A stretch of 37,202 bases of DNA from Sphingomonas sp. (lineage in GTDB: Bacteria; Pseudomonadota; Alphaproteobacteria; Sphingomonadales; Sphingomonadaceae): positions 1 to 37,202 of the forward strand of contig NZ_JACDDV010000018.1 of assembly GCF_013816785.1 (NCBI RefSeq), written 5' to 3'. The position numbers and the translations under genes are program-made. Each line of letters opens with the position of its first letter. Position 1 is the first letter of the stretch. The notes below the pieces were generated by a model that saw only the letters and a program-made list of their open reading frames with translations, searched no databases and was not told where the DNA came from. This document shows positions 1-34,676 of the stretch, in pieces.

Positions 1-1803
1 GTCGAGCACCATCTCCCGATCCCACGGCATCAGCGTGCGCAAGTCGATGAGGTCGGCGCTGATCCCGTCGGCAGCGGCCTCGCATCGCGGCACCATCGCG
101 CCCCAGGTGACGACCGTAATGGCATCGCCTTCGCGTACCTTCTTCGCCCTCCCGAACGGCAGGACGAATGCATCGCCCGGCCACGGCCGTCGGGCCCAGG
201 CATCGTCGAGCATCGCGCGATGCTCGAAAAAGATCACCGGGTCGTTGCCGCGTAAGGCAGCGCGCAACAGCCCGACCGCATCCTCGGCATTCGACGGCAC
301 TGCGACCTGCCAGCCAGGATTATGGACGAATTGCACTTCGTTGGTTTGGCTGTGCCACGGGTCGCCGCACTTGAAGAAACCGCCGGGGATGCGCAGGACC
401 ATCGGTGCCGAAAAGCGGTTGGCGGTGCGCCAGCGCATCGTCCCGCAATCGTTGATCTGCTCGGTCGCCGGCTCGGCATATTTGCGGAACTGGATTTCAG
501 GCACCGGCATCAAACCTGCCAGCGCCATGCCGACCGCGCGGCCGATAATGCCCTCTTCGTTGAGCGAGGTATCGAACACCCGGTCGTGGCCGTATTTGTC
601 TTGCAGGCCGAGGGTCACCGCGTGGACCCCACCCTTGGGTCCGACATCCTCGCCAAACACCAGCACCTTCGGATTGGCCGCCAGTTCCTGATCGAGCACT
701 CGGCGGATGGCGGTGACCATGTTGATCCGCTGTCCCTCCGGCCGCGGCTCATCACTGCTGCCGTCGACGCTCAGCCCTGCCCGGCCACCAACCCTGCTCG
801 GCTCGCCCTCGAAAAAAACGTTGCTCGTCACACGATCCGGCGACGACACGCCGCGCGCCTCGGCTTCCTCACGCGCCTTCTCGACCTCGGCCCCGGCTAG
901 GGATTCGATCGAGTCCCAATCGAGGTCGCCGGCGAACATCTTGAGCTTGGGCAGGGGGTCGCGCGCCCATTCCGCCTCGATCGTCTTTTCACTCTTGTAG
1001 GTCTGTGTGTCCTGGAAGCTGTGGCCTTCCAGCCGCGGCACCGTCAGCCGAATCAGTGCCGGGCCTTTACGGCCCCGCACATGCCCAATTGCGTCGCCGA
1101 TCAGCCGCGCGGATTCGGCCGGCTCGGTCCCGTCACCGCTGAAGATGGTGAGGTTCTTAAAGCTGCCGAGGTTGGCGGCGATATCGCGCCCCGGCGTCTG
1201 GTAATCCGACGGCACCGAAATGCCGTAGCCATTGTCCTCGATGTAAAATAGCATTGGCAAGGATTGCGTTGTCGCAATTGTTAGCGCTGCCCAAAATCCA
1301 CCCGTCGCGCAGCTGGCGTCACCGCCCAGCACCACACTGATCGCGCCGTTCGCTGGCTCGCCGAGCACGCGCTCCTTGTATATAATTGCCTGCGCCCAGC
1401 CTGCCGCCGGCGTATATTGCGCGCCGACCCCGCCGCACATCGGCAAGGCGTGACAGCCGCCCGGATTGGGGTAGTTGAACACCACGCCGATGTCGCGGCC
1501 GTCCGAATAGCCGCCTTCGCGGCCCATGCCCGACCCCAGCGCATCGGCCAGCGGCACGCCGAGCGCGAGCAGCATTGGCCGCGAACGATAATAGCCGCAC
1601 GCCGCGTCGCCATCGCGAAGCTGCAGGCCGAGAATAACCTGCGCCAGATCATGCCCGCGCGCCGAGAACTGATAGAGAATCTTTTTTTCGGGAACGAGCC
1701 TGGTCTCTTCGAGCGCGTCGAGTGCCCGGCTTGTGGTCACCAACCGCGCCACTTCCGCCCAGTCGAGGCCCGCCGCGGTCGCCCTAAAATGGGCGTCAGC
1801 CAT
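1..1803 (-). CDS. Fused alpha/beta E1 component of a TPP-dependent 2-oxoacid dehydrogenase (3' end outside window)
   Basis: The reading frame starts at ATG 1803-1801 and stays open to the left edge, giving 601 codons with the C-terminus missing. The N-terminal half is E1-alpha-like, with a TPP/Mg motif (GGDAS followed about 25 residues later by EDNGYGIS). The second half is E1-beta-like, with FGEDVGPKGGV, NEEGIIGRAVGMAL, DAITVVTWGAMV and LIDLRTLMPWD. Fused E1 proteins of this kind decarboxylate branched-chain or aryl 2-oxoacids and pass the acyl group to an E2 lipoyl protein. No E2 or E3 is visible here. The start overlaps the stop of the aminotransferase by 8 bp, which suggests translational coupling. 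I infer from the paa context that phenylpyruvate could be a substrate. A general 2-oxoisovalerate role is the main alternative. Confidence 0.88.
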   Translation of the reverse strand, partial: MADAHFRATAAGLDWAEVARLVTTSRALDALEETRLVPEKKILYQFSARGHDLAQVILGLQLRDGDAACGYYRSRPMLLALGVPLADALGSGMGREGGYSDGRDIGVVFNYPNPGGCHALPMCGGVGAQYTPAAGWAQAIIYKERVLGEPANGAISVVLGGDASCATGGFWAALTIATTQSLPMLFYIEDNGYGISVPSDYQTPGRDIAANLGSFKNLTIFSGDGTEPAESARLIGDAIGHVRGRKGPALIRLTVPRLEGHSFQDTQTYKSEKTIEAEWARDPLPKLKMFAGDLDWDSIESLAGAEVEKAREEAEARGVSSPDRVTSNVFFEGEPSRVGGRAGLSVDGSSDEPRPEGQRINMVTAIRRVLDQELAANPKVLVFGEDVGPKGGVHAVTLGLQDKYGHDRVFDTSLNEEGIIGRAVGMALAGLMPVPEIQFRKYAEPATEQINDCGTMRWRTANRFSAPMVLRIPGGFFKCGDPWHSQTNEVQFVHNPGWQVAVPSNAEDAVGLLRAALRGNDPVIFFEHRAMLDDAWARRPWPGDAFVLPFGRAKKVREGDAITVVTWGAMVPRCEAAADGISADLIDLRTLMPWDREMVLD

Positions 1804-3010
1804 TCATCGCCCCGACCACGGCGGCGACAAAACGATCGATTGCATCGTCGGCCATGCCGACGACGTTGAACCGGCCGCTGTCCGCCATGTAGATCGCGTG
1901 CGTGTCGCGCAGCTGCCGCACTTGGTGGGCATCGAACGGCAGCATCGAGAACATGCCGAATTGACCGCCGATGTAGGCCAGCCGCGGGTCGGCCGCCGCG
2001 ATCCGCGCGCGGATATTGTTGATCCGCGCCCGCATCCCGGCCAGTTCGACCTGCCAGTCTGCGGTCAGCGCTTGGTCGTCGAGCACGGTCCGCACCGCCG
2101 CCGCGCCATGGTCGGGCGGCATCGACCACATTTCGCGCGCAATCTGCGCGACATGGTCCATCGCCCGGCCCGATGTCGCGGCATCGGCCGACTTGATCCA
2201 CAGTGATCCGACGCGGTCGCGATAGACGCCGAAATTCTTGTCGCAGCTCTGCGCGACGATCACCTCGTCACAGACTTCGAGCAATGCGTGCAGCCCGGCC
2301 GCATCCTCGCCCAATCCGCACGCCAGCCCTTGGTAGGCGATGTCGACCAGCGGCAGCAGCCCGCGATGCGCGACCGTGCGAACGACATCCGCCCATTGGT
2401 CTTGGCTGAGGTCGGCGCCGGTGGGGTTGTGGCAGCATCCGTGGAGCAACACGACATCACCAGCCCGCGCGCCATCGAGCATCGACATCATCTCGTCGAA
2501 GCGGATGGCCTGCGCGTCGCGGTCGTAGTAGCCGTAGCGAACAATCTCCAAGCCGGCGGCGTTGATCACCGGCGCATGGTTGGGCCAGGTTGGCGTCCCA
2601 ACCAGCACCCGCGCTGTGGGGTTGGCGGCGGCGACCAACTTGAAGCCGAGCGCTAGCGCCCCGCAGCCGCCCGGCGTCTGCAATCCGAGCAACCGCTCGT
2701 CGCCGGCGTGGCGCCCCAGCACGAACGGCCGCAGCAATTCGGTGAACCGCCGGTCGCCCATGCTGCCAAGATAGCTTTTGCTGTTTTGGTGCTGCCACAG
2801 GATCTGCTCGGCGGCTTTGATGCAGCGGAAGATCGGCGTGCCCCCCGCCCCGTCACGATAGACGCCGACGCCGACGTCGATCTTATCGTTGCGTGGGTCG
2901 GCCTCGGCCAGCGCAATCAGCGCGAGCAGCGAGTCGCTCTTGATCGGGTCAAGGGCCTCAAGCAATTGGGCGCTCGCGCGCATTCCCGTCGTCGTCGGCT
3001 GGTCCAGCAT
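1796..3010 (-). CDS. Aspartate/aromatic amino acid aminotransferase (class I, TyrB/AspC type)
   Basis: 404-residue PLP enzyme of the aspartate/tyrosine aminotransferase family. The fold markers appear in order: DKIDVGVGVYRD near the N-terminus, GTPTWPNH (Trp stacking on PLP), HGCCHNPTGAD (Asn), DIAYQG (Asp/Tyr), and SCDKNFGVYRDRVG with the Schiff-base lysine. The usual start of the family aligns near residue 10, so ATG 2983 is a possible alternative start. The gene lies 77 bp after paaE and overlaps the downstream E1 gene by 8 bp. Transamination of phenylalanine or tyrosine to the arylpyruvate is the reading the neighbours favour. Aspartate transamination cannot be excluded from sequence alone. 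Confidence 0.9.
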   Translation of the reverse strand: MLDQPTTTGMRASAQLLEALDPIKSDSLLALIALAEADPRNDKIDVGVGVYRDGAGGTPIFRCIKAAEQILWQHQNSKSYLGSMGDRRFTELLRPFVLGRHAGDERLLGLQTPGGCGALALGFKLVAAANPTARVLVGTPTWPNHAPVINAAGLEIVRYGYYDRDAQAIRFDEMMSMLDGARAGDVVLLHGCCHNPTGADLSQDQWADVVRTVAHRGLLPLVDIAYQGLACGLGEDAAGLHALLEVCDEVIVAQSCDKNFGVYRDRVGSLWIKSADAATSGRAMDHVAQIAREMWSMPPDHGAAAVRTVLDDQALTADWQVELAGMRARINNIRARIAAADPRLAYIGGQFGMFSMLPFDAHQVRQLRDTHAIYMADSGRFNVVGMADDAIDRFVAAVVGAMNG

Positions 3011-3087
3011 GACGAGCGGCCTAGCCGATTCGTTGCGCCCGCGTAAAGCGTGCCCCTACCGGCTGGTGGTGCGGAGGATAAACGCCA

Positions 3088-4161
3088 TCACGCGTCGTAA
3101 TCGACCGCCACGCCCTCGCCGCACGGGACCGATTGGCAGGTCAGGATATAACCGGCCGCTACTTCTTCATCGGAGAGGCCGTAATGAACCGCCATATCGA
3201 CCTTGCCGCGCAATACCTTGGCTCGGCACGTCGCACACACTCCGGCCTTGCAGGCGAACGGCGCGGGCAGTCCGGCGTCGCGCGCGCTGTCCAGGATGTT
3301 CCGTCCATCGAACTGAACCTTGCGGGTCCGCCCGTCGAGCGTGACGCTGATCGACAGGCCGGCCGCTTCCTGCTGCAATACCGCCTGTCGCGCCGCCGCG
3401 GCCGCCGACGGTTTTCCGGCGATGAACCGCTCGATATGAATGCGGTCGTGCGCCACGTATCGGTCGGTCAACGCGGCCTCGGCCGCGTCCATCATCGGGC
3501 CTGGCCCACAGATGAACCAGGCGTCGACCTTGTCGGGCTCATCGACCAGCGCGCCGATCGCCGCGTCGCAGGTTGCGCGGTCGAGCATGCCGTTGAACAG
3601 GTCGACCTCGCCTTCCTCGTCGCTGAGGAAATGATAGAGTTCGAACCGCCCCATGTAGCGGTCCTTGAGCGCCGCCAGTGCTTCGAGAAAAATCACCGAA
3701 TTGGATTCGCGATTGCCGTAAAACAGCGTGAAGCGCGATCCGGGCTCGCAGCTCAGGGAGGTGCGGATCAGCGAAATCACCGGCGTGATCCCCGATCCGC
3801 CCGCGAACGCCACATAACGCCGCTTTGACGCGGGATCGAATGCCGTGGTGAACGATCCGTGCGGCGGCATCACATCGATCGTGTCGCCTGGCTTCAGCGC
3901 GTCCCCGACCCAGTTTGAAAAAACGCCGCCGGCGACCCGCTTGACGGTCACCAGCCACTGACCATCGTCGGGTGCGACGCACAGCGAGTAATTGCGCCTG
4001 ACTTCCTCGCCGCCGATGTCGGTGCGCAGGGTCAAATGCTGCCCGGCGCGAAAACGGAACGCATCGCGCAATTCGGCGGGCATCTCAAAGCGGATCGAAT
4101 TCGCCTCGTCGGTCTCGGCGACGATTTCCGCTACCTTGAGCGGGTAGAAATGTTCGGCCAT
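3088..4161 (-). CDS. paaE: Phenylacetyl-CoA 1,2-epoxidase reductase subunit PaaE
   Basis: 357-residue flavin/iron-sulfur reductase that passes electrons from NAD(P)H to the diiron PaaA subunit. It has an N-terminal FAD-binding barrel (RRNYSLC), a nucleotide-binding domain (GGSGITPVISLI, then CGPGPMMDAAE), and a C-terminal plant-type 2Fe-2S ferredoxin domain with CKAGVCATC and a later Cys in LTCQSVP. Length and domain order match PaaE. The ATG overlaps the paaC stop as TAATG, leaving no room for paaD, which in many paa operons lies between paaC and paaE. Confidence 0.94.
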   Translation of the reverse strand: MAEHFYPLKVAEIVAETDEANSIRFEMPAELRDAFRFRAGQHLTLRTDIGGEEVRRNYSLCVAPDDGQWLVTVKRVAGGVFSNWVGDALKPGDTIDVMPPHGSFTTAFDPASKRRYVAFAGGSGITPVISLIRTSLSCEPGSRFTLFYGNRESNSVIFLEALAALKDRYMGRFELYHFLSDEEGEVDLFNGMLDRATCDAAIGALVDEPDKVDAWFICGPGPMMDAAEAALTDRYVAHDRIHIERFIAGKPSAAAAARQAVLQQEAAGLSISVTLDGRTRKVQFDGRNILDSARDAGLPAPFACKAGVCATCRAKVLRGKVDMAVHYGLSDEEVAAGYILTCQSVPCGEGVAVDYDA

Positions 4162-4985
4162 TACCAGGTCGAGTCGGGATAGGTTCGCGGCAGAAACTGC
4201 ATCACCGCCAGCAGATGGCCGAGATGCTCGCTGTGATGTCCGCGTCGCCCGCCGAGGATCGGCCGCTGGTCGGGCGGAGGATCGAGCTTCGCTTCGCTCA
4301 GGACCCGCACAACCTCCGCGCGATATTCCTCCTCGAATGACCGGGGATCGACCGCGACGCCGCGCGTGATCAGTTCTTCGAGCTTCTCGTCGACCTCAAA
4401 CAGTTCGGGCACGAAGCGCCAGCACCAGTCGAGTCCTTCGGCCATCCGCCGCGCGCTCTCCTCGGTTCCGTCGCCCAGCCTGATCACCCAGTCGGCGGCC
4501 AGTTCGCGATGATATGCGACCTCCTTGACCGCCTTGGCGGCAATCCCCGCGATTCCCGGCTGGCTGGACCCGGTTAGCCGGGTCAGCAGCATGTGCTGCC
4601 AGGTCGAATAGAGGAATTGCCGCGCCATTGTCCGCGCGAAATCGCCGTTGGGCTGCTCGACCAGCCAGCAATTCTTGTAATCGAGCACATCGCGGTGAAA
4701 CGCGAGTTCGTCCACATCCCCGGCGAGCGACAGAAAATGCGTCGCCTGCCCGATCAGGTCGAGCCCGATGTTCGCCAAGCTGAGATCGACTTCGAGCGCC
4801 GGCGCATGCCCGCACCATTCGCTGAGGCGCTGCCCCAGTATCAGCGCATCATCGCCCAAACGACATGCGTAATCGGCTAGCGCAGCGTCATGCTCGTCGA
4901 TTGTCGGCGCATCGAACGCCCCGCCGTCGGGCGCCGTGCCGGCGTGACGTACCTGGTCTTTTTCAATCACTGGCAGCGAAGGCAT
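4161..4985 (-). CDS. paaC: Phenylacetyl-CoA 1,2-epoxidase structural subunit PaaC
   Basis: 274-residue ferritin-like, catalytically silent partner of PaaA in the epoxidase. Family landmarks are LGDDALILGQRLSEW, LSLANIGLDLIGQA, GDVDELAFHRD, the helix ending in VAYHRELAADWVIRLGDGT, and the C-terminal PRTYPDSTW. An upstream in-frame ATG at 5111 exists, but it would overlap most of the DUF3291 gene and adds residues unlike PaaC. The start chosen, ATG 4985-4983, overlaps the DUF3291 stop as TGATG and gives the normal length. Confidence 0.93.
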   Translation of the reverse strand: MPSLPVIEKDQVRHAGTAPDGGAFDAPTIDEHDAALADYACRLGDDALILGQRLSEWCGHAPALEVDLSLANIGLDLIGQATHFLSLAGDVDELAFHRDVLDYKNCWLVEQPNGDFARTMARQFLYSTWQHMLLTRLTGSSQPGIAGIAAKAVKEVAYHRELAADWVIRLGDGTEESARRMAEGLDWCWRFVPELFEVDEKLEELITRGVAVDPRSFEEEYRAEVVRVLSEAKLDPPPDQRPILGGRRGHHSEHLGHLLAVMQFLPRTYPDSTW

Positions 4986-5491
4986 CAGGCGCGACCAACG
5001 CACCATGGATCGGGTTGCATATCGACCGGTGGCCCGGCGCGGTCCGGCGGCGCGAACCGGGCCTTGAAAGTGAAGGCGTGAAGGCTCGGACCGAATCGGT
5101 CGAGCTGCCATAGCCGTGACAGGCCATCATTGATCGTCGGGATCGCCCCGGTCGGCACCCACCACAGCGCCTGATAAGCACCCTCTGAGACATTAAAATA
5201 TTCGCGCCGCCGGGCCATCTCCGGCGTATGGCCGCTGCGGTAGACATAGGCGAACAACGCATCCGAGTCCGTCCAAACCGACAGTTTGATAATGAACAAC
5301 GGATCGGGGCTGACCTCGATCTCCGTCGCATTGCCGCCTTCAGCCTGCAACCGCCAGATGAAGCCGGGGCTTTGATCGGCAAGCGCGTTGATCCGGTCGA
5401 GCGCGTCGAAGAACGGCTGGACCGCGGCGTCGCCCCTGGGCGCGACAAGCCGCCCGACATTGATCTGCGCTAGCTGCCAGTCGCTCGTCAT
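4985..5491 (-). CDS. DUF3291 family protein inside the paa epoxidase operon
   Basis: 168-residue protein with the DUF3291 pattern: LAQINVGRLVAPRGD at the start, DALDRINALADQSPGFIWRL, then LSVWTDSDALFAYVYRSGH and a Trp-rich segment near ALWWVP. The fold expected for the family is a ferredoxin-like dimeric alpha/beta barrel, as in small monooxygenases and heme-degrading proteins. The biochemical role is not known to me. It is coupled at both ends: ATGA with paaB upstream and TGATG with paaC downstream. It is therefore a true operon member, made in step with the epoxidase, and sits where I would expect paaB to be followed directly by paaC. Confidence 0.85.
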   Translation of the reverse strand: MTSDWQLAQINVGRLVAPRGDAAVQPFFDALDRINALADQSPGFIWRLQAEGGNATEIEVSPDPLFIIKLSVWTDSDALFAYVYRSGHTPEMARRREYFNVSEGAYQALWWVPTGAIPTINDGLSRLWQLDRFGPSLHAFTFKARFAPPDRAGPPVDMQPDPWCVGRA

Positions 5492-5769
5492 ATATGCTTC
5501 ACCTCGTTGGGGATGTCATAGAAGGTCGGGTGTCGATAGACCTTGTCTTCGGCCGGCTCGAACAGCGGTCCGCTGTCGGCGGGATCGCTCGCGGTGATCG
5601 ACGCCGACGGCACCACCCACAGGCTCACCCCTTCCTGCCGGCGCGTATAAGTGTCGCGAGCGTGGCGGAGCGCGAGTTCCGAATCAGGCGCATGAACGCT
5701 GCCGACGTGGCGATGATTGAGCCCGCCCTTCGAGCGGACGAACACTTCCCACAGCGGCCAGTCGCTCAC
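5488..5769 (-). CDS. paaB: Phenylacetyl-CoA 1,2-epoxidase subunit PaaB
   Basis: 93-residue PaaB, the small bridging subunit of the epoxidase. The start is GTG 5769-5767, overlapping the paaA stop as GTGA, and gives [17 protein letters not shown], which matches the conserved PaaB N-terminus. Conserved downstream patterns are [34 protein letters not shown] and [14 protein letters not shown] longer ATG-initiated version from 5841 would run through the paaA coding region and adds low-complexity Gly/Arg residues, so it was rejected. Confidence 0.93.
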
Positions 5770-6749
5770 GCCGCGGCCCTGGCCAGCCTCTTGGCCTCGT
5801 AAGCCGCCGCCGCGTCGCGCACCCAGGCACCCTCGTCCCACGCCTTACGTCGAGCTTCCATTCGCTCCTTGGCGACTGGCCCTTCGCCGCGCACCACCGC
5901 GTAAAATTCTTCCCAGTCGACTTCGCCGAAATCATAACCGCCCTTCGCCTCGTTCCACACGAGGTGGGCGTCGGGAACGGTCAGGCCAAGAAAATCCGCC
6001 TGCGGCACGGTAATGTCGACGAATTTCTGTCGCAGCTCGTCATTGGTCTCGCGCTTGATCCGCCAACGCATCGAGCGTTCGCTGTTGGGGCTATTGTCGT
6101 CGGGCGGCCCGAACATCATCAGGCTTGGCCACCACCAGCGGTTGAGCGCATCCTGCGCCATCCGCTTCTGCTCGGCAGTGCCATTGGCCAGCGCGATCAT
6201 GATCTCATAGCCCTGGCGCTGGTGAAAACTCTCCTCCTTGCACACGCGGACCATCGCACGGGCGTAGGGACCGTAGGAGGCGCGCTGCAGCGGCACCTGG
6301 TTCATGATCGCGGCGCCGTCGACCAGCCAGCCGATCGCTCCCATGTCGGCCCAGGTCAGCGTCGGATAGTTGAAGATGGTGGAATATTTGGCTCTGCCCG
6401 AATGGAGCGCATCGATCATCTGCTCGCGACTGGTCCCCAGCGTTTCCGCCGCGCAATAGAGGTAGAGCCCGTGCCCCGCTTCGTCCTGCACCTTGGCGAG
6501 CAGGATCGCCTTCCTCCGCAGCGACGGCGCACGCGTGATCCAATTGCCCTCGGGCAGCATGCCGACGATTTCGCTATGCGCATGCTGCGAAATCTGCCGC
6601 ACCAGCGTTTTGCGATAGGCCTCAGGCATCCAGTCCTTGGGCTCAATGAATTCGTCCGCGGCGACCCGCGCCTCGAACGCCGCGACCAGCGCGGGATCTT
6701 CGGAGCTATCGATTGAGGCAACATTCTTGCCGAGTTCAGTAGTGTACAT
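5766..6749 (-). CDS. paaA: Phenylacetyl-CoA 1,2-epoxidase catalytic subunit PaaA
   Basis: 327-residue diiron subunit that epoxidises the ring of phenylacetyl-CoA. The ferritin-like core shows [20 protein letters not shown], the ligand helix [17 protein letters not shown], and the second ligand helix [13 protein letters not shown]. The [12 protein letters not shown] loop and the C-terminal [19 protein letters not shown] are also typical. ATG 6749 was chosen because the family begins near MYTTEL, whereas the open frame extends 80 codons further upstream into non-homologous sequence. It is the first gene of the minus-strand operon and diverges from the hydroxylase gene at 6888. Confidence 0.95.
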
Positions 6750-6887
6750 AAGGATGATGTAGCGCGTCCTGCGGCCCGCTTCAAATCCCTCGATATTCCA
6801 CGGCGACTGCGGTTGCAGACCCATAGGAGGCGACCTACTAGAACCTGCCAAGCAAGAATTTTGACGTTTCGTAAGGAATAATGGGCC

Positions 6888-7829
6888 ATGCGCCTCAGCA
6901 AGCCGCTGCTGCAGCTCCCAATCCGCTTCAGCGCCGACAAGCTGGCGGCGGAGGTTCGGGCCTTGCCGCGGTCTGCCTGGATGCCGCATCCCACGGGCTT
7001 TGCAGGCAATGAGGCGGTGCCGCTGGTTTCACCCCAAGGCGAAATGACGGACGCGTTCGAAGGTCCAATGCGACCGACCGAACATCTCGAACAATGTCCC
7101 TACATCATGTCCTTGATGGCCGAATTAAACTGCGTGTGGGGGCGTAGCCGGCTGATGGCGCTCGCCGCCGGTGCGGAGGTGCCCGAACATATCGACATTC
7201 ATTATTATTGGCGAACCCACGTCCGGATCCACATTCCGGTGATCACCAATCCCGGCGTGCTGTTCACCTGTAATGGGGAGACGGTGCACATGGAGGCTGG
7301 CGAATGTTGGGCGTTCGACTCTTTCGCGCTGCACAATGTGCAAAACCAGGGAAGCGAGCGCCGCGTACACCTTGTCCTCGATACGGTCGGCGGGGAAAGA
7401 CTTTGGGATCTGCTAGAAGCGGCCTCGGCCGGAACCCCACCAGACCCTGGTACAGGGAACGATGCCTCAAGCGAGGCGACCAGCGATCCGCTTACGTTCG
7501 AACAGATTAATCGACCCAAGGTCATGTCGCCGTGGGAGATTGAGCGACACCTAATTTATATCTTGGACCATGCCCCGGTTGACGCACGGAGCGGGCCGGT
7601 CGCGAAGCGGCTCGACCGGTTCATCTCTGCATGGCGCGCCGCCTGGGCGCGCTTCGGCGAATCGGATGAGGGCCTGCCGACCTATCGTGCATTGATCGAG
7701 GATATGCGCGGCGAGCTCAAATCCTTGAACGCAGGCAATATTCGGCTGAGCAACAATCAGGGCCTGGATTTCACGATAGACGCGCTAGTTTTGTGGAACG
7801 CCGTGTCGCCCGTCCCGACGCGACACTGA
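6888..7829 (+). CDS. Aspartyl/asparaginyl beta-hydroxylase family protein with C-terminal extension
   Basis: 313 residues. The first 170 or so form an Fe(II)/2-oxoglutarate dioxygenase domain of the Asp/Asn hydroxylase family. The metal site is visible as HID within [12 protein letters not shown] and the distal His in [10 protein letters not shown], and a basic 2-oxoglutarate-binding residue is expected in [10 protein letters not shown]. The [14 protein letters not shown] strand and the PGE-like turn ([10 protein letters not shown]) are family hallmarks. About 140 residues follow that I do not recognise, rich in charged helices. The gene opens a same-strand run with a sulfotransferase and a second hydroxylase. 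The substrate is unknown. There is no obvious signal peptide, so it is probably cytoplasmic. Confidence 0.85.
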
Positions 7830-7875
7830 CCGCCAGCATGTCCTACAAGTCGATTGAATTGACGGCGCAAGGCCG

Positions 7876-8496
7876 ATGATTATTTCTTCCCTGCACAAAT
7901 TTATCTTCGTCGCAGTCCCCAAGACCGGGACTCACTCCGTGCGTCAGGCACTTAGGAAGCATTTGGGGGCGCAGGACCTGGAGCAGGTCGGCCTGTTCCT
8001 CAAAAAGCATTTCCCGATTCCAGAGCTTGCCAAATTGCAGCATGGCCACCTCAGCCTAAAGCAGATCCGGCCCTATCTGAGGCAGGAGGAATGGGAGACT
8101 TTTTTCAAATTCGCCTTCGTTCGAAACCCGTTCGACCGCTTCGTTTCCTACTGTGCCTTCATGACCCGGGACAGCGGCCAGTTCGACCGCGATCCGCAGG
8201 CCGTGATGCGCGATATTCTGGAGAAGCCGCCGCTGCATCACATTCTATTCCAGCCGCAGCACTTGCTGGTGACGGATACCGAGGGCGAGCTGTTGACCGA
8301 TCATGTCGGCAGGGTCGAGGAGATGCAGCGCTCTTACGATGAGATTTGCGATCGGATCGGCATCCCGACAGCGCCCCTCGAAAAGATCAACTCGTCGCAG
8401 CGCAGGAACTATCGGGAATATTACGACCAGCCGTTGATCGACAAGGTCGCCAACCTCTATAGCCGCGACCTGGAATTGTTCGATTACCGCTTCTGA
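7876..8496 (+). CDS. Sulfotransferase family protein
   Basis: 206-residue PAPS-dependent sulfotransferase fold. The 5'-phosphosulfate loop is seen near the N-terminus as FVAVPKTGTHSVRQAL, and the 3'-phosphate-binding segment as FAFVRNPFDRFVSYCAF around residues 80-96. The C-terminal YSRDLELFDYRF resembles Sulfotransfer_2-type carbohydrate or membrane-lipid sulfotransferases. It sits 46 bp after the first hydroxylase and 9 bp before the second, so the three genes are probably co-transcribed. The acceptor cannot be read from sequence. Confidence 0.85.
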   Translation: MIISSLHKFIFVAVPKTGTHSVRQALRKHLGAQDLEQVGLFLKKHFPIPELAKLQHGHLSLKQIRPYLRQEEWETFFKFAFVRNPFDRFVSYCAFMTRDSGQFDRDPQAVMRDILEKPPLHHILFQPQHLLVTDTEGELLTDHVGRVEEMQRSYDEICDRIGIPTAPLEKINSSQRRNYREYYDQPLIDKVANLYSRDLELFDYRF

Positions 8497-8505
8497 AGAT
8501 CAAGG

Positions 8506-9102
8506 ATGCAGCCGAACCCCCGCAAGACCAAGAGCGTTCGCCATCTGGGCACCGTCGACGTCGCGCGGCTTCGCGAGGCCGTGATCGCGATTCCCGACGC
8601 CATTTGGGACATGGAAGACGCCACCAAGCCCAATCGGTTTGGAGCGCTCGATGCGACGCGCCACATCATCTTCCGTTTTGTCTCGAGCTTCAACGACTGG
8701 CGGACCTCCGACGACAAGCCGTTATGGGCGGAATGGCGATCGATGCTTGAGCCGGTATTGGCGGCCGCAACCGCACCTTATGGCTACGTCCAGGGCGCCT
8801 TTCCTCGAATCATGCTGGCGAAGATGCGGCCGGGCGGTGTCATCCATCCGCACCGCGATGCCAATCCGGCTGCCAAATGGCCGCACAAGATCCACGTGCC
8901 GATCCAGACCAATGACGACGTAACCTTCTTCGTCGACGGAACCGGCTATAAATTTGCGGTCGGCGAAGCGATCGAAGTGAACAATATGGGCGTTCACGCG
9001 GTCCAGAACCTCGGCAGCACGGATCGAATTCATCTGATTTTTGAATATTACGACCTCGACCAGCCCGAACCCGACTGGCTTTCAGCAGCGGGCGCGGCCT
9101 GA
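8506..9102 (+). CDS. Second aspartyl/asparaginyl beta-hydroxylase family protein
   Basis: 198-residue Fe(II)/2-oxoglutarate dioxygenase of the same family as the product of 6888-7829, but only the catalytic domain. The metal ligands are HRD in VIHPHRDANP and His in NNMGVHAVQNLGS. The C-terminal TDRIHLIFEYYD supplies the expected 2-oxoglutarate-binding Arg. IHVPIQTNDDVTFFV and FAVGEAIEVNN correspond to the core strands. The start follows a purine-rich AAGG a few bases upstream. The two hydroxylases differ clearly in sequence, so this is not a recent tandem duplication. Confidence 0.85.
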   Translation: MQPNPRKTKSVRHLGTVDVARLREAVIAIPDAIWDMEDATKPNRFGALDATRHIIFRFVSSFNDWRTSDDKPLWAEWRSMLEPVLAAATAPYGYVQGAFPRIMLAKMRPGGVIHPHRDANPAAKWPHKIHVPIQTNDDVTFFVDGTGYKFAVGEAIEVNNMGVHAVQNLGSTDRIHLIFEYYDLDQPEPDWLSAAGAA

Positions 9103-9627: not shown

Positions 9628-9757
9628 TTGAATTGCAAAAACCCCGGCCGATTACCCCAAATGGAATAGCCTCGCGCGGTTACGAAGCCGTTAACCAAGG
9701 CTCGGCAGTGCCAAAGCCGACTTGATCCGGCATGCCCCTTGGCCTTTAGGAAGAAAG

Positions 9758-10537
9758 ATGACGTACGAAATGATCCAGCTTGCCCGCGCCGACGGCATCG
9801 CCCGCATTACTCTCAACCGGCCCGAGCGGCTCAACAGCTTTACCAAAGCGATGCATGCCGAGCTTCGCGACGCGCTCGACAACCTCGGCAAGGCTCGTGT
9901 CGTCATCCTCACCGGCGCCGGACGTGGCTTTTGCGCGGGGCAGGATTTGAACGACCGTGCGGTTGCGGGCGAGGAGCCGGTCGATCTGGGCGAAACGGTC
10001 GAGGCGAGCTGGAATCCGCTGGTCCGCACGCTGGCCGCTCTGCCGCAGCCGGTCGTCGCCCGCGTCAATGGAGTCGCCGCCGGCGCCGGCGCCAATATCG
10101 CGTTCGCCTGCGACCTGGTTGTCGCCGCCAAGTCGGCCAAGTTCATCCAGAGCTTCTCCGCGCTCGGCCTGATCCCCGACAGCGGCGGAAGCTGGCACCT
10201 CCCCCGCCTCGTTGGGCAGGCCCGCGCGCTAGGCCTCGCGCTGACCGGTGAGGCGCTGCCCGCCGCGAAAGCCGCCGACTGGGGCCTCATCTGGAAATGC
10301 GTCGAAGACGACGCGCTTGACGCCGAGGTCGATGCGCTCGCCGCGAAACTTGCCAGCCTCCCCCCACTCGGCCTTGCCGCGATTAAGGCGATCATCCGCA
10401 CCACCGGATCGCGCACCCTTGACCAGGAACTCGACCTCCAGCGCGACGAAATGCGCCGCCTCGGCTTCACCGCCGACTATCGCGAAGGCGTAACGGCGTT
10501 TCTCGAAAAGCGCCCGGCAAAGTTCGAGGGACGTTGA
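9758..10537 (+). CDS. paaG: 2-(1,2-epoxy-1,2-dihydrophenyl)acetyl-CoA isomerase PaaG
   Basis: 259-residue crotonase-fold enzyme that turns the ring epoxide made by PaaABCE into oxepin-CoA. Features are LNRPERLNSFTKAMHAEL at the N-terminus, the oxyanion-hole segment GAGRGFCAGQDLNDR, VARVNGVAAGAGANIAFACD, and the acidic catalytic segment LIPDSGGSWHLPRLVG. ATG 9758 is preceded by AGGAAG at good spacing; an ATG 36 bp upstream lacks this. It heads the plus-strand paa run toward paaZ. Confidence 0.9.
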   Translation: MTYEMIQLARADGIARITLNRPERLNSFTKAMHAELRDALDNLGKARVVILTGAGRGFCAGQDLNDRAVAGEEPVDLGETVEASWNPLVRTLAALPQPVVARVNGVAAGAGANIAFACDLVVAAKSAKFIQSFSALGLIPDSGGSWHLPRLVGQARALGLALTGEALPAAKAADWGLIWKCVEDDALDAEVDALAAKLASLPPLGLAAIKAIIRTTGSRTLDQELDLQRDEMRRLGFTADYREGVTAFLEKRPAKFEGR

Positions 10538-10660: not shown

Positions 10661-11083
10661 GTGATATCCTACGCAACGATCGGCACCAACAATCTGCCGC
10701 GGGCGCTCGCCTTCTATGACGCCCTGTTGGCAACGCTCGGCGCCAGGCGTCTTCTGGAGCCGCCCGATCACGCCGGCTTCACCATGTACGGAGTGGATCG
10801 GCAAAGCCCGTCGCTCGTGATTACCGGGCCTTACGACGGACAGCCGGCGACCGTCGGCAACGGCAGCATGATCGCCATGGCCATGCCGAGCCGAGGCGCG
10901 GTCGATCGATTCCATGCGCAGGCGCTCGCGCTTGGAGCGGCCGACGACGGCGCGCCCGGCCTTAGAAGCGATGAGGGCGAGCGAGCCTTTTATGGGGCCT
11001 ACTTTCGCGACCTCGATGGCCACAAATTCTGCGTGATGCGTATTGGCCCGGCAGACCGAAGCGGCGAAGGACAGAATCGATGA
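10661..11083 (+). CDS. VOC (glyoxalase/dioxygenase superfamily) protein
   Basis: 140-residue single VOC-fold protein: VISYATIGTNNLPRALAFYDALLATLGARR opens the first beta-alpha-beta module, and YGAYFRDLDGHKFCVMR closes the second, with the usual metal-ligand Glu position replaced or unclear. GTG 10661 is preferred because GGAGAAAGG lies just upstream and typical family members start at this motif. An ATG at 10649 is in frame and adds four residues. The stop overlaps the paaZ start as ATGA, so the two are translationally coupled. A role in handling a paa intermediate or toxic aldehyde is inference. Confidence 0.8.
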   Translation: MISYATIGTNNLPRALAFYDALLATLGARRLLEPPDHAGFTMYGVDRQSPSLVITGPYDGQPATVGNGSMIAMAMPSRGAVDRFHAQALALGAADDGAPGLRSDEGERAFYGAYFRDLDGHKFCVMRIGPADRSGEGQNR

Positions 11084-13101
11084 AGACCGCCCAACTCCTC
11101 AATTACTCCCATGACACGTGGATTCCCGGCTCCGGGCAGCTCGCGGAAATTGCCTCGGCGATCGACGGCAGCCTGGTCGCCACCACGGGCTCGGGCGGAC
11201 TCGATTTCAAGGGTATGCTCGATCACGCCCGCACCGTCGGCGGCCCCGCCCTGCGCAAGCTGACATTCCATGAGCGTGCACGGATCATCAAAGGCCTCGG
11301 CCTTGCCATCCTCGATCGCAAGGAAGAGCTGTACGAGCTCAACTACCTCACCGGTGCGACCCGCAAGGACGGATGGATCGACATCGAAGGCGGCGCGGGG
11401 ACATTGCTCAGCTTTTCGTCGAAGGGCCGCCGCGAGCTGCCAGACGCGCACGTGCTACTCGACGGTGCGCTCGAACCGCTATCGAAGAACGGCACCTTCC
11501 AGGGGCAGCATATCTATACGTCGATGCACGGCGCGGCGGTCCACATCAACGCGTTCAACTTCCCGGTGTGGGGAATGCTCGAAAAGCTCGCCCCGACACT
11601 GCTCGCCGGCATGCCCGCGATCGTCAAACCTGCCTCGTCGACCGCCTATCTCTGTGAAGCCGCTGTCCGGGTGATGATCGACAGCGGATTACTGCCCGAA
11701 GGCGCGGTGCAGCTGATTGTCGGCGGGGTCGGCGATCTGTTCGACCATCTCGGCGGTCAGGACGTCGTCAGTTTCACAGGTTCGGCGGCGACGGCGCTAA
11801 AGCTCAAGTCACACCCCGTCGTGCAGCGTGAAAGCGTCAGGTTCGTCGCCGAGCAGGACAGCCTCAACGCCTCGATCCTCGGCCCGGAGGCCGGCCCGGG
11901 CACTCCGGAATTCGACCTATTCGTCAAAGAGGTGGTCAACGAGATGACGGTCAAGGCGGGGCAGAAATGCACCGCGATCCGCCGCGCCATGGCCCCGGCG
12001 AAGCACCTCGACGCGCTCGAAGCCGCGATCCGCGAGCGCTTGGGGAAAACCACGGTCGGCGACCCCCGCGACCAGGAATCGCGAATGGGCTCGCTCGTTT
12101 CCTGCGCCCAGCGGGACGACGTCCGCGCCCAAGTGCAGAAGCTCATCGCTGCCGGGGCACGGATTGTCGCCGGTGACCCCGCCGCGTCGCCCGGACCCGA
12201 CGGCGGAGCCTTCATGGACCCGATCCTGCTCCGCGCCGACGATCCCTGGACGGCGAGCGCGGTTCATGATGTCGAGGCGTTCGGCCCGGTGTCGACGATC
12301 ATGCCCTACCGTGACAGCGCCGACGCCATCGCACTCGCCAATCGCGGCATGGGCAGTCTCGCCTTGTCGCTATTCACTCACTCGCCCGACGCCGCCCGCG
12401 AGTTTATCCAGGGCGCCGCCTCCTTCCACGGCCGGATGCTGGTCATCAACCGCGACAATGCCGCGGAAAGCACTGGGCATGGCTCGCCCCTCCCGGTGCT
12501 GGTCCACGGCGGCCCTGGCCGCGCCGGCGGGTCGGAGGAAATGGGTGGCATCCGCGGTGTGAAGCATTACATGCAACGGACCGCGATCCAGTCGACGCCA
12601 GCTATGCTGGCCGCGATCAGCGAGCAATATATCCCCGGCGCGCCCAAGCATTTCGTCGAAGGCCACCCGTTCACGAAGCGCATGGGCGAGCTTCGCATCG
12701 GTGACACGCTCAAGACCACCAGCCGCACCGTGACCATTGCCGATATCGAGCATTTCGCCGAGTTCACCGGCGACAAATTCTACGCTCATATGGACGAGGA
12801 AGCGGCCAAAGCCTCGCCGATCTTTGAAGGGCGCGTGGCCCACGGCTATCTGATCCTCAGCTTCGCCGCTGGTCTGTTCGTGTGGCCCGATCCCGGCCCC
12901 GTCCTCGCCAACACCGGGCTTGAGAATCTGCGCTTCCTGACCCCGCTCTATCCAGGCGATTCGATGCGGGTCGAACTCACTGTCCGTTCGAAATCCCTCA
13001 AGAGCGAGGACAGCGGCGTGGTCCGCTGGGCGGTCGAAGTCTTCAACCAGAAGGACGAGCTGGTCGCGACCTACGACCTGTTGACGGAGAATTTGCCGTG
13101 A
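11080..13101 (+). CDS. paaZ: Bifunctional oxepin-CoA hydrolase / 3-oxo-5,6-dehydrosuberyl-CoA semialdehyde dehydrogenase PaaZ
   Basis: 673-residue fusion. Residues 1 to about 520 are an aldehyde dehydrogenase with general-base Glu258 (FVAEQDSLN) and nucleophile Cys297 ([11 protein letters not shown]). Residues from about 535 form a MaoC-like hydratase with [15 protein letters not shown] and [13 protein letters not shown], which hydrolyses the oxepin ring. The order and length match full PaaZ, so both ring opening and oxidation of the resulting semialdehyde should occur. It is coupled upstream to the VOC gene (ATGA) and downstream to the next gene (GTGA). Confidence 0.95.
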
Positions 13102-32206: not shown

Positions 32207-33562
32207 ATGCAAAGCCGTGCCATGGAGCTTCATGCCGCCCCGCCGCCGCCGCCTCGCCCGCCGCAATCAAAGCGCCTCGGCGGGGTCATGAGCCTCGCCA
32301 TGGTGGTCGGCACGATCATCGGCTCCGGCATCTACGTCCTACCGGCAACGGTCGCGCCTTATGGCTGGAACATCGTCATTGCCTTTGCGGTCACGATCGC
32401 CGGTACCGTCTGCCTTGCTCTTTCCATGGCCCGGCTTGCCCGGCGCCTGCCGGGTGGCCCGTACAGCTATATTACGGTGGCATTCGGCGACACCGCGGCG
32501 TTTGTCACGATGTGGACCTATCTCGTGTCGCAATGGACTGGTATCGCGGCGGTCGCAATCGCCGCCGGCGGTGCGCTGGGTTATGTCTTCCCGGCCGTCG
32601 GTTCGGGCGTTCCATTGGCCGTCGTCGCGATTGTCTCGATCATCGCCTTGACGCTCGTCAACATGTCAGGCGCGCGATCGGCAGGGTTTGTCCAGGTCGC
32701 GGCCACACTCATCAAGATCGTGCCGTTGCTGCTCGTCGTCCTGCTCGTCCTGCTCCGCCTCGGCAGCGGGCAAGCGCTCGAGCCGCTCTCTTCGGCCCCG
32801 ATCAGCCTGGCCGGCATTACCGCCGCTGCGGCGCTCATGCTGTTTGCGTTCACCGGCTTCGAATCCGCCGCGGTGAGCGCCAATGTCACCGACCACGACA
32901 CTGACGTCGTGCCCAGCGCGACGATCAACGGCACCGTTTTCGTCGCTGCCATCTACCTCACAGCGACGCTCGCCGTGCTGTTCCTGCTGCCAAGCGTAGT
33001 GGCGGGTGCATCGGGCGCGCCCTTCGCCGATGCGACCGCCCCGGTGCTTGGAACCGTCGCGGGCGCATTTGTCGCCATCGTCGCTGCGATCAGCGCGCTT
33101 GGCGCCGGGAACGCCCTGATCTTGCTTTCGGCCGAAGTCGCCCGCGCCATTGCCAATGCGGGCGACCTGCCGCCAGCTTTCGCGCGCACCAATCGGGCGG
33201 GCGTTTCGCCCGTTTCGCTCATCGCCGGCGCCGTGGTCGCCATCCTGCTGGTTCTCGCCAGCATCAGCGACAGCTTCGTCGCGGTGTTCACGTTCGTTGC
33301 GCTGATTTCGGCGGTTTCCGCGTTGGTGCTTTACCTCGTCTGCGCGCTGGCAGCGCTTAAGCTGAAGGCGGAAAAGCCGCTCCTCGCCGGTATCGCCATC
33401 CTTTACGCGATCGCCATGTTCATTGGCGCGGGACTAGAGGCAACGTTGTGGGGCCTCGCCCTCGCCGCCGCCGGGCTCCCGGTCCGCTGGCTGTCGCGCC
33501 GCTTCAGTTCCGCCGCGACCAGCCCGGCGGCGGCAACCGTTCCAGCCGCGCCTCGGGAATGA
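32207..33562 (+). CDS. APC superfamily amino acid permease
   Basis: 451 residues with about 12 membrane helices. The unwound first helix carries GTIIGSGIYVLP, a consensus of the APC/AdiC branch, followed by ALSMARLARRLPGGPYSYI. A Pro/Ala-rich N-terminus precedes the membrane part. ATG 32222 is an alternative start. The C-terminal tail (SSAATSPAAATVPAAPRE) is low complexity and overlaps the Rieske gene on the other strand by 59 bp. Substrate unknown; arginine/agmatine-type exchange is possible by similarity to AdiC. Confidence 0.88.
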   Translation: MQSRAMELHAAPPPPPRPPQSKRLGGVMSLAMVVGTIIGSGIYVLPATVAPYGWNIVIAFAVTIAGTVCLALSMARLARRLPGGPYSYITVAFGDTAAFVTMWTYLVSQWTGIAAVAIAAGGALGYVFPAVGSGVPLAVVAIVSIIALTLVNMSGARSAGFVQVAATLIKIVPLLLVVLLVLLRLGSGQALEPLSSAPISLAGITAAAALMLFAFTGFESAAVSANVTDHDTDVVPSATINGTVFVAAIYLTATLAVLFLLPSVVAGASGAPFADATAPVLGTVAGAFVAIVAAISALGAGNALILLSAEVARAIANAGDLPPAFARTNRAGVSPVSLIAGAVVAILLVLASISDSFVAVFTFVALISAVSALVLYLVCALAALKLKAEKPLLAGIAILYAIAMFIGAGLEATLWGLALAAAGLPVRWLSRRFSSAATSPAAATVPAAPRE

Positions 33563-34676
33563 GCCGCCGCAATTTCTGAGCGAACGCGCGTAACGACACT
33601 TCGCTCGTCCCCAGCGGCCCGGCTATATAGGACGGCGAGCCCATCCCCGCCTGCACCCGGCTGATCAACTCAGTATCCTCGGCATTGACCCGCCGGTTGA
33701 TCCGCCAGTTCAAATAGCGCGCCACCTTCATCTCCCTTCGACAATCGGGCAGCGCATAGCTAATTTCGCGGATCACCGTCTCGGTCGCCGACACCGGCAG
33801 GAACTGCATGAAGTCGACCTGGTCGGGATAAATGTCGAACGCGACATTGGGGAACAGTTTGTAATAAAGCCACTTCTTGCGGTGCGACGGCGGCAGATAC
33901 TCCACCTCCGGCAGAAACTTCTGATAGGCCCGCTCGCTCGGGTTGGCCGACGGCGTTTCGCGCAGCTCGCCCTCCATCCGGTCGACATGCTCCTGCGCTT
34001 CGATTCCATAGCTCCGCCCGAACAACCGCGTCAGCCCGGGATGCCCGACCGGAATGTGCAGCGCGTCCGAATAATTGTCGGCGATGGTCTTCCAGTTGAG
34101 CGGGCGGCGGCGAAGCGTCACCCGCCCGATCGCCCGCAATTCCTCGAACCGGTAAGGCGCCACTTCGTCCTCATAGGGCGCCATCATCTCGACCACCGAC
34201 GGCGCGCCGGGCTCCAGCGTCACGAACAGGAAGCCGCGCCACGCCTCCAGCGCTACCGGGAACAGCCCCAACTTGGCCGGGTCCAGCCCCGGATAATCGC
34301 TCCGGTGCGGCACGCCGAGAAGCGCCCCGTCACGGCCATAGCTCCACGCATGATAGGGGCAGGTCAGCACCCGGGCGCATCCCGCCTCACCGTCGACCAG
34401 CCGCGATCCGCGGTGGCGGCAGACGTTGGCGAAGGCCCGCACCACGCCATCGTCGCCGCGCATGGCGATCACGCTCTCGTTCAGATAATCGAGGCTGCGC
34501 CACTCGCCCGGCTCGGCGATCTCGCTCTCGTGGCAGACGATTTGAGGCGCCGCGCGCAGGAATGCCCGCGTCTCCGCCGCCAGGAACTCGGCGTCGTGAT
34601 ACAGCCAACCCGGCAAGCTCATCCCGTCGAGCGCGTCGGGCTCGGGTATCGGCCGAATGGGCAGCGCTTCGTTCAT
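33504..34676 (-). CDS. Rieske non-heme iron ring-hydroxylating oxygenase, alpha subunit
   Basis: 390 residues. The Rieske 2Fe-2S site is CRHRGSRLVDG with the second pair in LTCPYHAWSYG (about residues 85-110). The mononuclear iron site is DNYSDALHIPVGHPGL (about 200-215), followed by the oxygenase domain with VAFDIYPDQVDFMQFLPVS. No beta subunit, ferredoxin or reductase is next to it, so partners must be encoded elsewhere. Possible substrates include aromatics or quaternary ammonium compounds; sequence alone does not decide. The start is divergent from the cyclase gene. Confidence 0.88.
   Translation of the reverse strand: MNEALPIRPIPEPDALDGMSLPGWLYHDAEFLAAETRAFLRAAPQIVCHESEIAEPGEWRSLDYLNESVIAMRGDDGVVRAFANVCRHRGSRLVDGEAGCARVLTCPYHAWSYGRDGALLGVPHRSDYPGLDPAKLGLFPVALEAWRGFLFVTLEPGAPSVVEMMAPYEDEVAPYRFEELRAIGRVTLRRRPLNWKTIADNYSDALHIPVGHPGLTRLFGRSYGIEAQEHVDRMEGELRETPSANPSERAYQKFLPEVEYLPPSHRKKWLYYKLFPNVAFDIYPDQVDFMQFLPVSATETVIREISYALPDCRREMKVARYLNWRINRRVNAEDTELISRVQAGMGSPSYIAGPLGTSEVSLRAFAQKLRRLIPEARLERLPPPGWSRRN

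What the first reader, a model, noticed from the sequence alone, without database searches (positions are those of the whole stretch)
1..6749. Aromatic aminotransferase and fused 2-oxoacid dehydrogenase E1 continue the phenylacetate epoxidase operon
paaA-B-DUF3291-C-E is followed on the same strand by a TyrB/AspC-type aminotransferase and an E1 alpha/beta fusion, with the last two overlapping by 8 bp. Seen directly: gene order, overlaps, motifs. Known: PaaABCE needs phenylacetyl-CoA, usually made by PaaK from free phenylacetate. Inferred: this operon could make phenylacetyl-CoA straight from phenylalanine by transamination and oxidative decarboxylation of phenylpyruvate, without phenylacetaldehyde or PaaK. 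No E2 or E3 is visible, so the complex would need partners from outside the window.
Basis: partly seen in the sequence, partly recalled or inferred. Interest (0 to 1): 0.72.

Follow-up and report, generated by a model that had tools for sequence, protein, structure and literature searches.

The report
Phenylalanine shortcut into phenylacetate breakdown
This bacterium appears to feed phenylalanine into the phenylacetate ring-breaking pathway through a dedicated enzyme complex that makes phenylacetyl-CoA directly from phenylpyruvate, so it does not need the usual ATP-consuming ligase.

Summary
In detail: paaA-B-(DUF3291)-C-E are followed on the same strand by an aromatic aminotransferase and a fused E1 alpha/beta. 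The window is a whole contig; contig C40 of the same genome starts with 45 bases matching the window's end (3 mismatches), completes E1, and encodes an E2 two bases later. Four same-genus genomes show paaABCE-aminotransferase-E1-E2 uninterrupted.

The own genome has no PaaK and no indolepyruvate oxidoreductase by family search, but has separate PDH, BKD-type and OGDH complexes and an E3. In 249 family genomes, 23 of 24 with this E1 have paaA, against 4 of 225 without it. Of 80 named E1 loci, 50 carry paa genes nearby; of the other 30 genomes, 28 have paaA elsewhere. None of 23 genomes with the uninterrupted order has PaaK.

Most likely: a dedicated phenylpyruvate dehydrogenase complex for phenylalanine breakdown. 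The substrate is inferred, not shown. PglB/PglC of pristinamycin biosynthesis is a described parallel; in nine full-text searches I saw no catabolic version. Against exclusivity: an aromatic amino acid hydroxylase is also present, and E1 occurs in most paaA genomes of the family, with or without PaaK.

The parts
5766..6749 (-). paaA, phenylacetyl-CoA epoxidase catalytic subunit
   Evidence: TIGR02156 528 bits; 70% identical to E. coli PaaA
5488..5769 (-). paaB, epoxidase subunit; GTG start overlaps paaA stop (GTGA)
   Evidence: TIGR02157 140 bits; junction
4985..5491 (-). DUF3291 protein inserted between paaB and paaC, overlapping both neighbours (ATGA, TGATG)
   Evidence: PF11695 164 bits; of the 20 relatives' loci and 80 named loci examined, found only in L119
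4161..4985 (-). paaC, epoxidase structural subunit (start inferred from the TGATG junction)
   Evidence: TIGR02158 271 bits; junction
3088..4161 (-). paaE, epoxidase reductase
   Evidence: TIGR02160 416.2 bits, cut-off 420.8; 43% identical to E. coli PaaE
1796..3010 (-). aromatic aminotransferase (AroAT/TyrB/AspC type), proposed phenylalanine to phenylpyruvate
   Evidence: NF006719 457 bits, cut-off 377; best solved relative 1ay4 AROMATIC AMINO ACID AMINOTRANSFERASE, E 6.7e-97, with aspartate aminotransferases close behind
1..1803 (-). fused 2-oxoacid dehydrogenase E1 alpha/beta (E1f), proposed phenylpyruvate dehydrogenase E1; its last 77 residues and the E2 lie on contig C40
   Evidence: PF00676 + PF02779 + PF02780; completion on C40
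1..45 (.). contig end; reverse complement matches the first 45 b of contig C40 with 3 mismatches
   Evidence: C40 then encodes the E1f C-terminus (79-96% identical to that of 25 relatives' loci) and an E2
9722..10537 (+). paaG, ring epoxide isomerase, divergent to the paaA operon
   Evidence: ECH_1 203 bits; 55% identical to E. coli PaaG
11080..13101 (+). paaZ, fused aldehyde dehydrogenase / oxepin-CoA hydrolase
   Evidence: Aldedh + MaoC domains; 53% identical to E. coli PaaZ

Best explanation
The operon is a phenylalanine-to-ring-cleavage unit. The aminotransferase turns phenylalanine into phenylpyruvate. The fused TPP-dependent E1 (E1f) decarboxylates phenylpyruvate and, with the E2 encoded right behind it and a lipoamide dehydrogenase E3 shared with the 2-oxoglutarate complex, passes the phenylacetyl group to CoA, giving phenylacetyl-CoA, CO2 and NADH. 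PaaABCE, PaaG and PaaZ then open the ring. This bypasses phenylacetaldehyde, free phenylacetate and the ATP-dependent ligase PaaK, which was not found in the genome. Shown here: gene content, order, overlaps, the E2, no PaaK and no indolepyruvate oxidoreductase by family search, and the genome-wide association of E1f with paa. Inferred: the substrate of E1f, the sharing of E3, and co-transcription.
For: Gene order and overlaps. E2 with lipoyl, E3-binding and catalytic domains behind E1f: own genome across contigs C57/C40; an E2 in the same place in 20 of 20 relatives' loci and 78 of 80 named loci, the other two (L126, L137) being cut by contig ends. Uninterrupted paaABCE-aminotransferase-E1f-E2 in the 4 other genomes of the genus drawn and, in the same order and strand, in 23 of 23 loci L089-L111 (L105 shows no paaA, its contig being short). 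Indolepyruvate:ferredoxin oxidoreductase: best 27 bits, cut-off 651. PDH, OGDH with E3, and a BKD-type complex are separately encoded. Association: family, E1f in 23 of 27 paaA+ and 1 of 222 paaA- genomes, Fisher P 2e-27; class, 4 of 385 genomes (the own one included) have E1f and all 4 have paaA, background 48 of 385; named loci, 50 of 80 with a paa gene in the fetched flanks and paaA over cut-off elsewhere in 28 of the 30 others. Two E1f stretches, QFRKYAEP and FKCGDPWHSQ, differ from PDH and BKD (the own BKD-type beta reads QFADYIYP and GGIFGGQTHSQ); all but one of their residues are invariant in 16 of 16 relatives.
Against: No enzyme assay, structure or expression data. The genome also has a biopterin-dependent aromatic amino acid hydroxylase (PF00351, 136 bits), so phenylalanine may go to tyrosine instead. 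Among the 27 paaA+ family genomes E1f and PaaK are not significantly exclusive (P 0.62): 13 have both, so E1f does not simply replace PaaK. One paaA+ genome (G189) shows neither. Genomes are related and the family and named samples overlap, so the evidence is less independent than the counts suggest. The aminotransferase neighbour is not universal (family loci: 15 of 20 upstream on the same strand, 2 on the other strand, 3 none; named loci: 37 of 80 upstream on the same strand, 10 elsewhere). The C57/C40 overlap is short and imperfect, and C40's genes beyond E2 recur downstream of E2 in only 2 of 25 relatives' loci. The predicted E1f model was too poor around the putative active site to test the pocket.
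Confidence: 0.8

Rival explanations
1. E1f-E2 is a second branched-chain (BKD-like) 2-oxoacid dehydrogenase that happens to sit beside paa; phenylacetyl-CoA comes from another CoA ligase or CoA-transferase acting on free phenylacetate.
For: The E1 beta half is closest to the own BKD-type beta (47%). An ORF family, one member of which is Lrp/AsnC-type by Pfam, recurs beside E1f in 18 of 30 loci without nearby paa; Lrp-type regulators also control bkd operons (recalled, no call).
Against: A BKD-type complex is already encoded on C91. E1f was met almost only in paaA+ genomes, over several orders and with several gene arrangements. Distinct, conserved sequence loops.
Confidence: 0.1
2. E1f-E2 takes a wider range of aryl-pyruvates (4-hydroxyphenylpyruvate, indolepyruvate) and its main flux is not phenylalanine.
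For: AroAT-type aminotransferases take several aromatic amino acids (recalled); some Pseudomonas and Rhizobium loci have E1f without paa in the fetched flanks.
Against: Even there paaA is in the genome (28 of 30 over cut-off), and the partner in paa loci is the phenylacetyl-CoA epoxidase. Genes for degrading other aryl-acetyl-CoAs were not searched for.
Confidence: 0.08
3. The unit is biosynthetic: phenylacetyl-CoA is made for a tropone or phenylglycine-type product, as with PglB/PglC.
For: PglB/PglC are described as a phenylpyruvate dehydrogenase in L-phenylglycine biosynthesis (PMC10685826 and PMC7089894, passages read).
Against: A full-length PaaZ with both aldehyde dehydrogenase and hydratase domains lies in the same window, as needed for degradation; no NRPS domain turned up in the 25 window ORFs scanned with Pfam, which do not cover the whole window.
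Confidence: 0.02

Closest known systems
PglB/PglC phenylpyruvate dehydrogenase of Streptomyces pristinaespiralis (L-phenylglycine biosynthesis)
   Same: PDH-like E1 alpha and beta said to turn phenylpyruvate into phenylacetyl-CoA (PMC7089894, PMC10685826; passages read)
   Different: separate subunits, antibiotic biosynthesis in an actinomycete; here one fused chain with its own E2 in a degradation operon. The sequence relation was not tested: those genes were not fetched.
Canonical phenylacetate catabolon (E. coli paaABCDEFGHIJK, paaZ)
   Same: PaaA, B, C, E, G and Z have clear counterparts (43-70% identity)
   Different: no PaaK found in the genome, no PaaD between C and E, aminotransferase + E1f + E2 in the operon instead
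Branched-chain 2-oxoacid dehydrogenase (BKD) and PDH E1 of the alpha2beta2 type
   Same: same TPP domain order, E2 with lipoyl, E3-binding and catalytic domains
   Different: alpha and beta fused in one chain, different loops near the conserved HSQ motif, scores far under the PDH equivalog cut-offs
Direct phenylalanine to phenylacetyl-CoA conversion in Phaeobacter inhibens (tropodithietic acid)
   Same: phenylacetate is skipped as an intermediate (PMC7497051, passage read)
   Different: the enzyme there is, as recalled, an indolepyruvate:ferredoxin oxidoreductase, which was not found in the own genome

Membership tests
2-oxoacid dehydrogenase complex, E1 (alpha2beta2 type) | TPP-binding E1_dh domain, transketolase pyrimidine-binding domain and C-terminal domain | tested here: met
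   PF00676 95 bits, PF02779 110 bits, PF02780 43.5 bits, all over gathering
2-oxoacid dehydrogenase complex, E1 (alpha2beta2 type) | dedicated E2 with lipoyl, E3-binding and acyltransferase domains | tested here: met
   C40 E2: PF00364, PF02817, PF00198 all over cut-off, 2 bases behind the E1 stop if read from the GTG that aligns with relatives' starts
2-oxoacid dehydrogenase complex, E1 (alpha2beta2 type) | E3 available | tested here: met
   lipoamide dehydrogenase TIGR01350 573 bits beside sucB on C12; that it serves this complex is inferred
Pyruvate dehydrogenase E1 (equivalog) | score over the TIGR03181, TIGR03182 or NF008854 cut-off | tested here: not met
   109, 94 and 152 bits against cut-offs of 411, 394 and 454; the protein is incomplete at its C-terminus
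Phenylpyruvate dehydrogenase (PglB/C-like activity) | CoA- and NAD-dependent oxidation of phenylpyruvate to phenylacetyl-CoA | not testable with these tools
   no assay; supported by context only
Phenylacetyl-CoA epoxidase PaaABCE | PaaA, PaaB, PaaC over NCBIfam cut-offs in one operon | tested here: met
Phenylacetyl-CoA epoxidase PaaABCE | PaaE over TIGR02160 cut-off | tested here: inconclusive
   416.2 bits, cut-off 420.8; domains and gene position fit
Aromatic amino acid aminotransferase (NF006719) | score over cut-off | tested here: met
   457 bits, cut-off 377; nearest solved structure 1ay4. Preference for Phe over Asp not tested.
Canonical phenylacetate catabolon | PaaK phenylacetate-CoA ligase in the genome | tested here: not met
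   best 28 bits, cut-off 646, in a genome rated 99.95% complete

The most novel reading that the evidence does not exclude
E1f-E2 is a widespread, so far undescribed catabolic phenylpyruvate dehydrogenase complex of alphaproteobacteria and some pseudomonads. In a whole sphingomonad group (23 of 23 genomes checked, plus the window's genome) it is the only entrance to the phenylacetate pathway, so that 'phenylacetate degradation' there is really a phenylalanine pathway that cannot use free phenylacetate.
Probability: 0.6. Interest if true: 0.7.

Novelty: new variant of a known kind. Interest (0 to 1): 0.62.

Why it matters
It would add an ATP-free entrance to a common aromatic degradation pathway: NADH is gained and the ATP-to-AMP cost of PaaK is saved (stoichiometry from general knowledge). 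It could explain paaK-less genomes: a 2020 genome study reports PaaK absent in Sphingopyxis sp. YF1 and C-1 (PMC7273453, passage read), though E1f was not looked for in those strains. It bears on surveys that use PaaK as the anchor of the pathway (PMC13186573, passages read), and gives a function to a conserved fused E1 that passes the cut-off of no NCBIfam model.

Tried and rejected
The structure model of E1f (the protein of L069 with 15 rows) had mean pLDDT 64 and under 50 at residues 439-503, which hold the loops of interest, so it was not used for pocket analysis and no fold search was made. A test for mutual exclusion of E1f and PaaK among paaA+ genomes gave no support (P 0.62), and I do not claim it. 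The idea that the operon depends on a partner outside the genome was dropped when the E2 was found on C40. Indolepyruvate:ferredoxin oxidoreductase as the source of phenylacetyl-CoA was tested and not found. A promoter/terminator scan of 1-7200 gave numbers no better than shuffles. Lower-pathway genes paaF, paaH and paaJ were not searched genome-wide; the only related gene met is a thiolase on C40, 44% identical to E. coli PaaJ. PaaD elsewhere in the genome was not searched. Literature: nine full-text searches on the topic and one on Sphingopyxis and microcystin showed no catabolic phenylpyruvate dehydrogenase complex with paa; some listings were capped (20 of 57, 20 of 77, 20 of 29) and most subscription journals are not held, so this is weak evidence of novelty.
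Full report
Observation. The window is the whole of contig C57 of a 2.28 Mb genome in 95 contigs, rated 99.95% complete. On the minus strand, in order of transcription, lie paaA, paaB, a DUF3291 gene, paaC, paaE, an aromatic aminotransferase and a fused E1 alpha/beta. Five of the six junctions overlap; the exception is 77 bases between paaE and the aminotransferase. PaaA, B, C and the aminotransferase pass their curated cut-offs; PaaE misses its own by 4.6 bits. paaG and paaZ lie divergently in the same window, behind a small group of other genes.

The missing E2. E1 runs off the left end of the contig. An own-genome search for the E2 catalytic domain gave four places. One is on contig C40 (7111 b), whose first 45 bases match the reverse complement of window 1-45 with 3 mismatches. 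Two bases behind its stop, if read from the GTG that aligns with relatives' starts, begins an E2 with lipoyl, E3-binding and acyltransferase domains. C40's further genes recur downstream of E2 in two of those 25 loci (L099, L106) and not in the rest, apart from a weak thiolase match in L098, so this synteny supports the join only in part. In the four other genomes of the genus that were drawn, the order paaABCE-aminotransferase-E1-E2 is uninterrupted.

Other complexes. The same genome encodes PDH (pdhA and lipoyl-pdhB on C82, pdhC on C12), OGDH with a lipoamide dehydrogenase (C12) and a BKD-type E1 alpha, E1 beta, E2 set (C91). The E1 subunits of the C91 set score under the PDH cut-offs; calling it BKD-type rests on its loops, which resemble those of solved 2-oxoisovalerate dehydrogenases. 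The fused E1 (E1f) is therefore a fourth complex. Its beta half is 47% and its alpha half 28% identical to the BKD-type subunits.

No usual source of phenylacetyl-CoA was found. PaaK: the best hit has 28 bits against a cut-off of 646, and lies in a fatty acyl-AMP ligase. Indolepyruvate:ferredoxin oxidoreductase: 27 bits against 651. A biopterin-dependent aromatic amino acid hydroxylase is present, so phenylalanine has another possible route.

Association within the family. Of 249 family genomes, 24 have E1f (E up to 1e-100), 27 have paaA and 16 have PaaK (E up to 1e-100; 15 over the cut-off). 23 of 24 E1f genomes have paaA, against 4 of 225 others (Fisher P 2e-27; relatedness not corrected). 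In 15 of the 23 the two genes lie within 12 kb on one contig (coordinates). Of 11 paaA genomes without PaaK, 10 have E1f; of 16 with PaaK, 13 have it. E1f and PaaK are thus not mutually exclusive (P 0.62). One genome, G189, has paaA and neither at these thresholds.

Association beyond the family. In 385 genomes of the class, 4 (the own one included) have E1f and all 4 have paaA, against a background of 48 in 385. The scan looks for the peptides FKCGDPW and YQFSARGH, so relatives with neither would be missed. 50 of 80 carry at least one paa gene (A, B, C, D, E, G, K or Z) in the fetched flanks, 40 of 80 an epoxidase gene, in several arrangements. Of the 30 others, 28 have paaA over the cut-off elsewhere, one has only a 51-position fragment, and one (L135, an Oleiphilaceae MAG) has none. 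These loci are the best-scoring ones, not an even sample; some are the same genomes as in the family survey; and the class is not a matched background for Pseudomonas. PaaK was tested in 50 of the 80 genomes (E up to 1e-80): 0 of 23 for L089-L111, all of which carry paa genes, aminotransferase, E1f and E2 in this order on one strand, and 19 of 27 for L112-L138. Several of these genomes are MAGs and may be incomplete.

Mechanism. The simplest reading is phenylalanine to phenylpyruvate (aminotransferase), phenylpyruvate + CoA + NAD to phenylacetyl-CoA + CO2 + NADH (E1f, E2, shared E3), then epoxidation and ring opening by PaaABCE, PaaG and PaaZ. Two stretches of E1f, QFRKYAEP and FKCGDPWHSQ, are invariant in 16 of 16 sequences but for one position, and align with QFADYIYP and the HSQ loop of BKD-type chains. 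They differ from PDH and BKD and bring extra aromatic residues, which would suit an aromatic substrate. That these stretches line the active site is recalled knowledge of E1 structures, not tested; a structure model was too poor there.

What is known. PglB/PglC are described as a phenylpyruvate dehydrogenase in phenylglycine biosynthesis (passages in PMC10685826, and PMC7089894). A review says that Phaeobacter inhibens converts phenylalanine to phenylacetyl-CoA through phenylpyruvate (passage in PMC7497051). A Pseudomonas tropolone cluster has a decarboxylase and a PaaK homologue instead (passages in PMC11481866). A 2026 survey of the pathway inspects the surroundings of PaaK; a term search of its main text found no mention of phenylpyruvate or aminotransferase (passages in PMC13186573). 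A Sphingopyxis study notes missing PaaK in two strains (passage in PMC7273453). A 2009 study of paa clusters, searched by term only, held no match for sphingomonad names or aminotransferase (PMC2653477). Nine searches on the topic showed no catabolic phenylpyruvate dehydrogenase linked to paa.

Verdict. I rate it a new variant of a known kind.

Noticed in passing
window 4985-5491: A DUF3291 gene sits inside the epoxidase operon between paaB and paaC, overlapping both. The same insertion was seen in one other locus (L119, Sphingosinicella MAG, 76% identical); no match was found in the other 79 named loci or the 20 relatives' loci.
   Followed up: partly
window 4161 (paaC/paaE junction); L068-L071: No paaD between paaC and paaE in the window or in four same-genus loci, whereas 9 of 9 other family loci with both paaC and paaE in view have it there. 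Whether PaaD lies elsewhere was not tested.
   Followed up: partly
window 6888-9102: Two aspartyl/asparaginyl beta-hydroxylase genes with a sulfotransferase gene between them lie between paaA and paaG; counterparts of all three lie around paaG in L091, and the sulfotransferase beside paaG in L110.
   Followed up: partly
L124, L132, L141, L147 and other loci without nearby paa: An ORF family recurs beside E1f in 18 of 30 loci, mostly on the opposite strand in the part printed; the one member checked is Lrp/AsnC-type by Pfam (L147); a possible amino-acid-sensing control.
   Followed up: partly
G189 (unnamed family genome): paaA over cut-off but neither PaaK nor E1f at E up to 1e-100: a third source of phenylacetyl-CoA may exist, or a more distant PaaK.
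   Followed up: no
window 1-45 and contig C40 1-45: The overlap of the two contig ends carries 3 mismatches in 45 bases, which do not change the translated residues; this suggests strain variation at the assembly break.
   Followed up: partly
window 32207-34676: An amino acid permease gene (+) and a Rieske ring-hydroxylating oxygenase alpha gene (-) overlap at their 3' ends by coordinates; no link to the paa operon was tested.
   Followed up: no
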